From assembly GCA_025449805.1 (NCBI GenBank), contig JANWIR010000030.1:1-34610 (forward strand): a stretch of 34,610 nucleotides of DNA, in the 5' to 3' direction. Position 1 is the first letter of the stretch. Each line of letters starts with the position of its first letter. The notes under the pieces are model-generated. The model did not search any database, had not been told where the DNA came from, and was given only the letters and a program-made list of their open reading frames with translations. A program made the translations under genes and the position numbers. This stretch comes from Acidimicrobiales bacterium (GTDB lineage: Bacteria > Actinomycetota > Acidimicrobiia > Acidimicrobiales > RAAP-2). Below are positions 11,664 to 14,858 of the stretch, one piece after another.

Positions 11664-12833
11664 TTAGGGACGTGCCGCGCCGATGAGACCCGAGGTAAAG
11701 AGCGGGGCCAGAGACACACTGGTGCCCGAATGCGCGGCGGCGATGGTGGTGTTGACGCCCCACGGTCCACTGCCGACGTACATGACCTCGTGGTCGACCG
11801 CGTGGTCACCGTCGAGGTTGTAATAGAACAGCAGGTCGCCGGGCTGTAACTGCGTGAGTGGTACGTGGTGCATGGCCGGCCACTGGGTCTCGGTGGTGCG
11901 CGGAATCGCGATGCCGGCCTTCGCCCAGGCCCACTGGGTCAGACCCGAACAGTCAAAGCCCACGCCCGGCGTCTCGCCGCCCCACACGTAGGGCACGCCG
12001 ATTTGGCTCTTCGCGAACGCAACGGCGGCTAAACCCTGTTTGGAGCCGGCGATTTCGGCGATGGCGGGCACGGTGATGGCCGACTGGATGGCCGAGATGA
12101 CCTGGTTGGCGGCGCTCTGGCCACCAACGACCGAAGCCGCGTTGATGGCCTGGGTCTCACCGGCCTGGTTGTGCGCCCGTGCGGCGGCGACGCCGGCCGC
12201 GATCTCGTAGGTGATGATCTCGCCCTTGAGACGAGTAGTGACCTTCTCTAACGTGGCGCGCGTTTGGTTGGAGCGTTGGATGTTTTCCGCGAGCAGAAAC
12301 TGCATGGCCGCGGTCTGGTGCTGCTTTTGGAGGCGCTGCGCGGCGAGTTGCGCGACGGTGTGCTCGAGCGACTTCTTCTGGGCGACGTACGTATCACGCA
12401 GTTGATTCAAGTCACCCACCACCTGTTGCTCGTAGACGTTGCGCGCGTCGGCGTTGGTGACCTTTTGGCGAAACAGCGAGAGAATCTGCGCGTCGGCGGC
12501 GCCGAGGACGTACGCGCGCACGACCGCCACGACCAACTGCTGCGACGTGGCGGCGATCGAGGTCCGCTTGGAGGCTTCTTGACTCTGGAGTCGTTGAATG
12601 TTGGCTTCGATGACGGCCAGCTTCGCCTTGTCGGCGTCGTACTGGTTCGCCGCAATTTCACTGGCCTTCTCTTGCTGGGAGAGCTCGAGCGAGAGCGTGG
12701 CGATCTGGCCCTGGGTCTGTTGGATCGACTGGGCCTGCGCCACCAGGGGGGTCGCCAAGGCCGCCACGAGGGTCGCGGCGAGAACTACGAGGGGGGTCGT
12801 TCGTGTCGTGCCCCGACGACGCACGCGAAACAT
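11664..12833 (-). CDS. secreted NlpC/P60 family peptidoglycan endopeptidase with N-terminal coiled coil
   Basis: Signal peptide, long coiled coil, then KSQIGVPYVWGGETPGVGFDCSGLTQWAWAKAGIAIPRTTETQW...LQPGDLLFYYNLDGDHAVDHEVMYVG. Cys in DCSG with downstream His (DHEVMYVG). Confidence 0.95.
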   Translation of the reverse strand: MFRVRRRGTTRTTPLVVLAATLVAALATPLVAQAQSIQQTQGQIATLSLELSQQEKASEIAANQYDADKAKLAVIEANIQRLQSQEASKRTSIAATSQQLVVAVVRAYVLGAADAQILSLFRQKVTNADARNVYEQQVVGDLNQLRDTYVAQKKSLEHTVAQLAAQRLQKQHQTAAMQFLLAENIQRSNQTRATLEKVTTRLKGEIITYEIAAGVAAARAHNQAGETQAINAASVVGGQSAANQVISAIQSAITVPAIAEIAGSKQGLAAVAFAKSQIGVPYVWGGETPGVGFDCSGLTQWAWAKAGIAIPRTTETQWPAMHHVPLTQLQPGDLLFYYNLDGDHAVDHEVMYVGSGPWGVNTTIAAAHSGTSVSLAPLFTSGLIGAARP

Positions 12834-12872: not shown

Positions 12873-12901
12873 TTGGACGAAACGAGCCGGTGCGTTAGCG
12901 T
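12873..12901 (+). promoter_or_regulatory. candidate tRNA promoter: TTGGAC -17 nt- TAGCGT
   Basis: TTGGAC 12873-12878, 17-nt spacer, TAGCGT 12896-12901, with the tRNA 5' end at 12919. Confidence 0.5.
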
Positions 12902-12918: not shown

Positions 12919-12992
12919 GGGGGCGTAGCCCAATTGGCAGAGGCAGGGCGCTTAAACCGCCTCCAGTGAGGGTTCGAGTCCCTTCGCCCCTA
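12919..12992 (+). tRNA. tRNA with anticodon UAA (tRNA-Leu), short variable loop, CCA not encoded
   Basis: Acceptor GGGGGCG/CGCCCCT; D-arm GCC-CAATTGGCAGA-GGC; anticodon arm GGGCG-CTTAAAC-CGCCT (TAA); variable CCAGT (5 nt); T-arm GAGGG-TTCGAGT-CCCTT; discriminator A. Confidence 0.93.
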
Positions 12993-12995
12993 CGC

Positions 12996-13011
12996 GTCGA
13001 GGGTGTTCGAC
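12996..13011 (+). terminator. 5-bp hairpin GTCGA-GGGTGT-TCGAC followed by an AT-rich run, just 3' of the tRNA
   Basis: Perfect 5-bp inverted repeat 4 nt after the tRNA 3' end, followed by AATATTTAG. Confidence 0.3.
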
Positions 13012-13020
13012 AATATTTAG

Positions 13021-13026
13021 TAGCGT
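13021..13026 (+). promoter_or_regulatory. TAGCGT -10 box, 6 nt before the GTG at 13033
   Basis: TAGCGT-tgtccc-GTG. Confidence 0.45.
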
Positions 13027-13032
13027 TGTCCC

Positions 13033-13830
13033 GTGGCTAAAAGCGCTTCGGGTAAATGGGTCAGTCGCGTCGGTGCGTCCGGCGGTGGCAAGTCGTATCA
13101 ACGGCGACGTCCGTCCAACTTCATCGGCGCGATCACGTTGATCGTCGTGCTGGGTCTCTTGACCACGATTTACTCGCGCTACGAGTATCAACACCCCGCG
13201 GTGACGACGACCGCGCCCCAGGTCGCGCCGGCGATTGGCACCACCTGGTACGCCGCGCTGTCGCTGCAGGCCTGCGGCGAACGTCTGCCGTTCTTGAACG
13301 CCGACCCGAACTTCAAGGGTGGCTTCAAGGTCCGGGCCGCCAACGTCCTTCAGATCAGTCCCACCTCGCCCGCTGACGCGGGCAACAACGCCACGCTCAA
13401 GCAGTTCGCCGCGGAGTTCCCCGGACTCGTGTTGACCTCTAGCAAGTTGGCGGTGCCGACCGCGACCGGTCTCGTGAATCCCAAGACGACCTACGCGAAC
13501 GGGCAGACCTGTCCTACGGGCTCTAAGTACGCCGGTCAGAAGGGTTCCGTTGTCTACGCCTACTGGCGCTCCTTCGGACAAAAGACGCCGACTCTCACGA
13601 CGGACCCCGCGTCGATCAAGTTCTCGCAGTACCTGCGCGTGTCGATGGCCTTTGAGCCCAAGGGCGTCACGCCCCTCGCGCCGTTGCAGGTCAGCGTGAA
13701 CGACATGGTGGCCGCGACGCAGGCGACCACGACGACGACCGCGCCGGTTGCCACGACGACCGTTCCCGCTACGACGAGTACGACTGCCCCCAATGCGGGA
13801 TCGACCACCACCACCACGTCGAAGGGCTGA
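13033..13830 (+). CDS. single-pass membrane-anchored protein of unknown function with Thr-rich C-terminal tail
   Basis: Basic N-terminus, one TM (FIGAITLIVVLGLLTTIYS), extracytoplasmic domain, then ATQATTTTTAPVATTTVPATTSTTAPNAGSTTTTTSKG. Confidence 0.8.
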   Translation: MAKSASGKWVSRVGASGGGKSYQRRRPSNFIGAITLIVVLGLLTTIYSRYEYQHPAVTTTAPQVAPAIGTTWYAALSLQACGERLPFLNADPNFKGGFKVRAANVLQISPTSPADAGNNATLKQFAAEFPGLVLTSSKLAVPTATGLVNPKTTYANGQTCPTGSKYAGQKGSVVYAYWRSFGQKTPTLTTDPASIKFSQYLRVSMAFEPKGVTPLAPLQVSVNDMVAATQATTTTTAPVATTTVPATTSTTAPNAGSTTTTTSKG

Positions 13831-13832
13831 GC

Positions 13833-14858
13833 TTGCAGTCGATCATCTTGGTCGGCGGTAAGGGAACGCGGCTTCGACCGCTCACGTACGAAACACCCAA
13901 GCAGATGCTGCCCCTGGTGGGCGCGCCGATGATCGAGTCCGTGATGTCGACCCTCGCGGTTCACGGTGTCACCGACGCGGTGCTGTCGCTCGGTTATCTG
14001 CCCGACCGCTTTACCGCGGCCTACCCGAGCAACGTGATTGCGGGTGTTCGCGTCACGTACGCGGTGGAGCCCGAACCACTCGACACCGCCGGCGCGATTC
14101 GCTTCGCCGCGCAGTTCGCGGGCATCGACGAGACCTTCGTGGTCGTGAACGGCGACGTCCTCAGTGACCTCGATCTCACGGCCCTCGTCGCGTTTCACCG
14201 ACACCGCGGCGCCGAAGCGACCATTGCGCTCACGCCCGTCGATGATCCGTCGGGTTTTGGAGTGGTCGCGACCGACGCGCAGGGACGCGTGAGCGCGTTC
14301 ATCGAAAAGCCGCCCGCGGGCGAGGCGCCGAGCAACCTCATCAACGCCGGCGTGTACGTCTTTGAGTCCTCGGTCCTACCTCTCATCGACCCCTCACGGC
14401 CGGTCAGCGTGGAGCGCGAGATCTTTCCCGCGCTGGTCGCGCGCGGCACACTGTTCGCGAACGCCGTCGACGCCTACTGGATTGACACCGGCACGCCACA
14501 GACTTACCTTCGCGCCAACGTTGACGTCTTGCGCGGACGTCGTTCCCAGCGCGACTTCCCCGGCGTGCTCGACGGGTCGTGGTGCCACCCGAGCGCGACG
14601 ATCGACCCGACGGCGAAGGTCACCAACAGCGTCGTCGACGCGAACTGCGTCGTCGGCGCGCACGTGGTGCTGGAAGACGCCGTGCTACTGCCCCGAGCGA
14701 TCGTGCAAAGTGAGTGCGTGATTCGTGGTTCCATCATCGGCCCCGAGGCCGTTATTGGTACCGGTTCCGAGCTCGGCCCCACGTGCGTCGTCGGTGCGCA
14801 CGAGTACGTTGCACCCGCGTCGCAGTTGAGTGGTGACGTGCGCCTGGGCGGCGTCTAG
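13833..14858 (+). CDS. sugar-1-phosphate nucleotidyltransferase (mannose-1-phosphate guanylyltransferase-like) with C-terminal left-handed beta-helix
   Basis: SIILVGGKGTRLRPLTYETPKQMLPLVGAPMIE; VVNGDVLSDLDL; FIEKP; hexapeptide-type repeats C-terminally (ATIDPTAKVTNSVVDANCVVGAHVVLEDAVLL). TTG start likely. Confidence 0.92.
   Translation: MQSIILVGGKGTRLRPLTYETPKQMLPLVGAPMIESVMSTLAVHGVTDAVLSLGYLPDRFTAAYPSNVIAGVRVTYAVEPEPLDTAGAIRFAAQFAGIDETFVVVNGDVLSDLDLTALVAFHRHRGAEATIALTPVDDPSGFGVVATDAQGRVSAFIEKPPAGEAPSNLINAGVYVFESSVLPLIDPSRPVSVEREIFPALVARGTLFANAVDAYWIDTGTPQTYLRANVDVLRGRRSQRDFPGVLDGSWCHPSATIDPTAKVTNSVVDANCVVGAHVVLEDAVLLPRAIVQSECVIRGSIIGPEAVIGTGSELGPTCVVGAHEYVAPASQLSGDVRLGGV

What the first reader, a model, noticed from the sequence alone, without database searches (positions are those of the whole stretch)
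12919..12992. UAA-anticodon tRNA with a leucine-type D-arm but a class I (5-nt) variable loop
All stems pair by hand-folding. The 3-bp D-stem with 11-nt loop (GCC-CAATTGGCAGA-GGC) matches bacterial tRNA-Leu D-arms (e.g. E. coli GTG-GAATCGGTAGA-CAC), and the discriminator is A73 as LeuRS needs. The variable region is only CCAGT, whereas canonical bacterial tRNA-Leu is class II with a long variable arm (e.g. bldA). The molecule is about 74 nt. This bears on how LeuRS recognises it and how UUA codons are read. I cannot tell from sequence whether this is lineage-wide in some Actinobacteria, so novelty is uncertain.
Basis: partly seen in the sequence, partly recalled or inferred. Interest (0 to 1): 0.68.

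Follow-up and report, generated by a model that had tools for sequence, protein, structure and literature searches.

The report
Short-armed leucine tRNA, phylum-wide
The gene is a genuine leucine tRNA for the codon UUA that lacks the long extra arm textbooks assign to bacterial leucine tRNAs; it is not a local oddity but the normal form in much of the phylum Actinomycetota, and by published gene length and wording apparently in the tuberculosis bacterium too.

Summary
In detail: window 12919-12992 (+) is a tRNA with anticodon UAA, a leucine-type D-arm, A73 and a 5-nt variable loop. It is no artefact. The same short-armed tRNA-Leu(UAA) is at the same locus in the window's genus. It occurs in 29 of 118 sampled genomes of its order (52 others have the long-armed form, none both) and in at least 59 of 297 genomes sampled across the phylum, e.g. 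Mycobacterium, Nocardia, Arthrobacter. The stems covary. Near-complete relatives have the other leucine tRNAs in the long form, no long UAA tRNA and one LeuRS. UUA codons align with leucine as often as CUC or CUG. So LeuRS very probably charges it, using the D/T elbow and A73, and it is the sole UUA reader. The form is already in public annotation: M. tuberculosis leuX (UAA) and leuV (CAA) are listed as 74 bp (PMC9336784). I found no paper presenting short-armed bacterial tRNA-Leu as a lineage trait; a 2023 review says long arms are universal outside animal mitochondria (PMC9976931). This locus is a new member of an annotated but little-discussed kind.

The parts
12919..12992 (+). tRNA-Leu(UAA), class I (short variable loop), positions 1-73; CCA not encoded
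   Evidence: ARAGORN, Rfam RF00005 52.6 bits, homologues with covariation
12928..12944 (+). D-arm: 3-bp stem GCC/GGC, 11-nt loop CAATTGGCAGA with A14, A15, G18, G19, A20a (leucine-type)
   Evidence: ARAGORN structure; identity elements as listed in PMC9976931
12953..12955 (+). anticodon TAA in loop CTTAAAC (A37)
12963..12967 (+). variable loop CCAGT (5 nt); last base U48 can form the A15-U48 pair
   Evidence: A15-U48 in 126 of 129 distinct class I homologues
12992..12992 (+). discriminator A73
   Evidence: A in 128 of 129 homologues
12873..12901 (+). promoter-like TTGGAC-17-TAGCGT just upstream of the tRNA
   Evidence: read by eye; similar -10-like element at a similar place in L165 (TTGACG-16-TAGCGT), L148, L073, L129. 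The consensus scan did not report it, so inferred only
11664..12833 (-). divergent NlpC/P60 gene upstream, conserved neighbour
   Evidence: PF00877 E 3.2e-19; synteny in relatives
13033..13830 (+). downstream conserved gene of unknown family, followed by a nucleotidyl transferase gene at 13833-14858
   Evidence: PF00483 for 13833-14858; both conserved next to the tRNA in L148, L165, L129, L186, L188, L189

Best explanation
It is a functional, housekeeping tRNA-Leu that reads UUA (and perhaps UUG by wobble), and it is the only UAA-anticodon tRNA of its lineage. A single ordinary LeuRS charges it through A73, the Leu-type D-loop (A14, A15, G18G19, A20a), the A15-U48 pair and the T-loop, elements that do not need the long arm. 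Shown: the gene and its structure, conservation and covariation, mutually exclusive distribution with the class II form, one LeuRS per genome, UUA codons standing for leucine. Inferred: transcription, charging by LeuRS, and loss or replacement of the long arm from a class II ancestor.
For: Structure. Conservation and covariation: 129 distinct homologues, V-loop 5 nt in 121 and 6 nt in 8, A15-U48 126/129, A73 128/129; pairs. Sole decoder: in G074, G110 (same genus, 97% complete), G022 and the single-contig 100% complete G334, class II Leu CAA, CAG, GAG, UAG occur once each and the only UAA tRNA is class I; 12 further genomes show no class II UAA with a relaxed pattern. One LeuRS in each of 12 genomes. 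UUA = Leu: 44/68 (65%) of the genome's aligned TTA codons face Leu, versus 53% for CTC and for CTG; in IMCC26103, whose UAA tRNAs are class I, 363/622 TTA face Leu and TTA is the commonest Leu codon (tRNAs). E. coli LeuRS does not need the long arm: variants lacking it remain active (review PMC9976931). M. tuberculosis Leu-CAA, listed at 74 bp, is an in vitro MiaA substrate (PMC9336784). Conserved synteny.
Against: No charging or expression data for this organism. The window's own assembly is only 76% complete and lacks LeuRS, so copy number and LeuRS rest on relatives. The unmodified minimum-energy fold is not the cloverleaf. The promoter is only inferred.
Confidence: 0.93

Rival explanations
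1. The gene is a tRNA pseudogene or a phage/mobile-element leftover, with a normal class II UAA tRNA elsewhere.
For: Class I tRNA-Leu genes occur in phages and in large tRNA arrays; the assembly is incomplete.
Against: Lone chromosomal gene with synteny conserved over the genus and beyond; near-complete relatives have no class II UAA gene; strong covariation.
Confidence: 0.02
2. The tRNA has a UAA anticodon but carries another amino acid (recoding of UUA or mistranslation).
For: Outside the V-arm, its mean identity to class I tRNA-Lys (0.597) is close to that to class II tRNA-Leu (0.605).
Against: TTA codons align with Leu as often as other Leu codons do; all Leu identity elements are conserved.
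Confidence: 0.02
3. Origin variant (compatible with the function above): the class I form is not a shrunken tRNA-Leu but a class I tRNA (Lys/Asn-like) recruited to leucine by a D-arm insertion and anticodon change, then swapped into leucine loci.
For: D-arm and position 9 resemble class I tRNA-Asn/Cys/Lys (D region identity to Asn 0.71, to class II Leu 0.65); acceptor stems differ from class II UAA genes at orthologous loci.
Against: U48 plus T-arm is closest to class II Leu (0.76). At orthologous loci class I and II alternate: L050 shares both flanking genes with class II loci, and Gly-Cys-Leu(UAA) operons carry class I (L327) or class II (L333) in one order.
Confidence: 0.35

Closest known systems
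M. tuberculosis leuX (Leu UAA, 74 bp) and leuV (Leu CAA, 74 bp), PMC9336784 Table 1
   Same: Same anticodon family and length; mycobacterial relatives in the data (L141/L215 UAA, L221 CAA) are class I with the same D-arm architecture and CAGT-type V-loop. A 2024 paper says tRNA-Leu-2, 3 and 5 of M. tuberculosis have long variable loops, implying that the other two do not (PMC11541572).
   Different: In the mycobacterial genome examined both UUR tRNAs are class I; in the window's genome CAA is class II. The M. tuberculosis sequence itself was not read here.
Class II tRNA-Leu(UAA): E. coli leuZ and the order's own class II genes (Streptomyces bldA, from memory)
   Same: Anticodon, 3-bp D-stem with 10-11-nt loop, A14, A15, G18G19, A20a, U48, A73
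   Different: Long variable arm (82-86 nt molecules in class II relatives, 87 nt for leuZ) against a 5-nt loop here; A9 instead of G9; C13-A22 instead of G13-A22
Cluster-encoded tRNA-Leu(TAG) with short variable loop in Mycobacterium mucogenicum/phocaicum (PMC6582537)
   Same: A short-variable-loop bacterial tRNA-Leu noted in print
   Different: UAG anticodon, extra copy in a horizontally acquired cluster beside a normal long-loop gene; here it is the sole UAA tRNA
Animal mitochondrial tRNA-Leu
   Same: Lacks the long arm, per the review PMC9976931
   Different: Organellar, reduced tRNAs; no sign of common descent of the trait

Membership tests
tRNA (RF00005) | Score above gathering threshold, full cloverleaf | tested here: met
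   52.6 bits vs 29, model 1-71 complete; covariation
Bacterial tRNA-Leu | Discriminator A73 | tested here: met
   A at 12992; 128/129 homologues
Bacterial tRNA-Leu | A15-U48, G18G19, A20a elbow elements | tested here: met
   Present here; A15-U48 126/129. G18G19/A20a partly required by the search pattern, so not independent in the survey
Bacterial tRNA-Leu | Reads leucine codons | tested here: met
   TTA positions face Leu 65% (n=68), CTC/CTG 53%
Bacterial tRNA-Leu | Aminoacylated by LeuRS | not testable with these tools
   Needs biochemistry; one LeuRS per genome in relatives
Class II tRNA | Variable arm of 10 nt or more | tested here: not met
   5 nt, CCAGT
Actinomycetota short-armed tRNA-Leu(UUR), M. 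tuberculosis leuX type | UUR anticodon, 3-bp D-stem with 10-11-nt loop, V-loop 5-6 nt usually ending in T, A73 | tested here: met
Actinomycetota short-armed tRNA-Leu(UUR), M. tuberculosis leuX type | Sole UAA tRNA of the genome | tested here: inconclusive
   Only UAA tRNA found in the 76% complete own genome; met in near-complete relatives

The most novel reading that the evidence does not exclude
Bacteria hold an old, widespread second kind of tRNA-Leu, class I in shape, which replaces the class II form at orthologous loci and moves between UAA, CAA and UAG anticodons, so 'tRNA-Leu is class II in all bacteria' is wrong for much of a major phylum; LeuRS tolerates both shapes in one cell.
Probability: 0.6. 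Interest if true: 0.62.

Novelty: new member of a known kind. Interest (0 to 1): 0.45.

Why it matters
Two natural leucine tRNA shapes served by one LeuRS in the same cell make the role of the long variable arm testable without engineering; in mycobacteria both UUR tRNAs appear to lack it. A 2023 review still treats the long arm as universal outside animal mitochondria, so identity rules and annotation filters based on class II shape would mis-handle a normal tRNA of Actinomycetota. UUA is a rare codon in the high-GC members, so this tRNA also bears on bldA-type regulation.

Tried and rejected
LeuRS in the own genome: not assembled, so relatives were used. Single-sequence fold: does not give the cloverleaf. 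Promoter scan: no consensus hit; the promoter claim stays an inference. Terminator-like site 12996-13011: near chance (1 found, 0.4 expected). Origin by similarity: inconclusive between class II Leu and Lys/Asn. Literature: ten full-text searches found no paper describing class I bacterial tRNA-Leu as a lineage trait; the open-licence library misses most subscription papers, and a paper on the Anabaena tRNA operon is not held. M. tuberculosis tRNA-seq paper PMC10531406: main text has no Leu detail. Rejected: pseudogene, phage leftover, non-leucine identity (see rivals).

Full report
Observation. ARAGORN and Rfam independently find a tRNA at 12919-12992 on the + strand with anticodon TAA. The 3' CCA is not encoded. 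The unmodified single-strand minimum-energy fold prefers another pairing in the D/anticodon region, so the cloverleaf was tested comparatively.

The genome. The window is contig C30 of a 1.36-Mb, 76% complete assembly. The nearest named hits with the same neighbouring genes are an Acidimicrobiaceae MAG and other actinobacterial bins (L148, L165, L073, L129). Its other leucine tRNAs, CAA, CAG and GAG, are ordinary class II genes. UAG was not found, but near-complete relatives have it, so its absence is probably assembly loss. LeuRS is also not assembled.

Distribution. A pattern fitting both short and long forms was run over 118 genomes of the same order. Counting the printed matches by hand, 29 genomes have the class I form (39-nt match), 52 have the class II form (46-62 nt), none has both, and 37 give no match; no family shows a mixture. 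The class I form spans 17 families. Across the phylum the strict class I pattern hits 60 of 297 genomes, one of which (G203) looks like a chance match. The patterns are strict, so these are lower bounds.

Conservation. Among 129 distinct class I sequences the variable loop is 5 nt in 121 and 6 nt in 8, A73 is present in 128, A14 in 128, A15-U48 in 126; these positions were not required by the search pattern. On 23 diverse sequences 99.1% of cells pair and 16 of 20 pairs have changes on both sides, with 127 compensatory cells against 30.7 in shuffles and 22-35 in slid controls.

Sole reader of UUA. With a covariance model of class II tRNA-Leu, the same-genus genomes G074 and G110, the same-family G022 and the complete single-contig G334 each gave class II CAA, CAG, GAG and UAG and a class I UAA, with no class II UAA. 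A relaxed pattern in 12 more class I genomes found no class II UAA. Each of 12 genomes, with class I or class II UAA, has one LeuRS (the two G039 rows are one open frame).

UUA means leucine. ORFs from 553 kb of this genome were aligned with ORFs from 800 kb of IMCC26103. The genome's TTA codons face Leu in 44 of 68 cases (65%); CTC and CTG face Leu in 53%. IMCC26103 TTA codons face Leu in 363 of 622 (58%). UUA is rare in this genome (2.8 per thousand in the compared genes) but the commonest Leu codon in IMCC26103 (23.5), whose two UAA tRNAs are both class I. So the short form supports both rare and heavy use.

Mechanism. In E. coli the leucine determinants are A73, A15-U48, G18G19 and A20a, and variants lacking the long arm remain active (review PMC9976931). 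All these elements are here. The best explanation is therefore an ordinary LeuRS reading the elbow and A73, with the long arm dispensable. Charging itself was not tested.

Genomic setting. The gene lies between a divergent NlpC/P60 gene and a conserved gene followed by a nucleotidyl transferase, and this order is kept in relatives. A TTGGAC-17-TAGCGT element lies upstream, with similar elements in L165, L148, L073 and L129, but the consensus scan did not call it.

Origin. In the same order L050 (class I) shares both flanking genes with class II loci such as L042, L043 and L052. In a Rokubacterium order the Gly(GCC)-Cys(GCA)-Leu(UAA) operon, the same gene order as E. coli glyW-cysT-leuZ, carries class I in L327, L334 and L335 and class II in L333. 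So the shape changes at orthologous loci. Whether by shrinkage or by recruitment of a class I tRNA is open.

Wider family. Class I tRNA-Leu also exists with CAA (Mycolicibacter L221, IMCC26103 L222, and L223-L226 in this order) and UAG anticodons (L227, L228), in phages and in tRNA arrays of a cyanobacterium, a Chloroflexaceae MAG and a planctomycete MAG.

What is known. M. tuberculosis leuX (UAA) and leuV (CAA) are tabulated as 74 bp (PMC9336784), and a 2024 paper names only tRNA-Leu-2, 3 and 5 as long-looped (PMC11541572). A short-loop tRNA-Leu(TAG) was noted as an exception in one mycobacterial cluster (PMC6582537). The 2023 identity review says Leu tRNAs have long arms everywhere except animal mitochondria. 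So the fact is in public annotation, and I found no statement of it as a phylum trait, within an open-licence library only. This gene is a new member of that kind. The interest lies in the neglected pattern rather than in this locus.

Noticed in passing
L221, L222, L223-L226, L227, L228: Class I tRNA-Leu genes with CAA or UAG anticodons, some in genomes whose UAA tRNA is class II, suggesting anticodon switching within a short-armed Leu lineage.
   Followed up: partly
L327, L334, L335 versus L333: Gly-Cys-Leu(UAA) tRNA operon (as in E. coli glyW-cysT-leuZ) with class I or class II Leu in members of one Rokubacterium order.
   Followed up: partly
L115:1815-4535, L100:56-4411, L168:663-3957: Large tRNA arrays; in L115 (Cylindrospermum) all five leucine tRNAs are only 74-78 nt long.
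   Followed up: no
phage records H1-H25: Lactobacillus, Streptomyces, Gordonia and Synechococcus phages match the class I tRNA-Leu(CAA) over 82-100% of its length, many annotated tRNA-Leu; Mycobacterium phages match its 3' part at 96%, as expected of an attP.
   Followed up: no
window 13010-13035: TTTAGTAGCGTTG followed a few bases later by the GTG start of the downstream gene, conserved in L165, L186, L188 and L148: looks like a promoter for a leaderless transcript.
   Followed up: no
L216 (IMCC26103): The second UAA class I gene of IMCC26103 has an acceptor stem GCCCCCG/TCGGGGC with a C-C mismatch; it may be a decaying duplicate.
   Followed up: no
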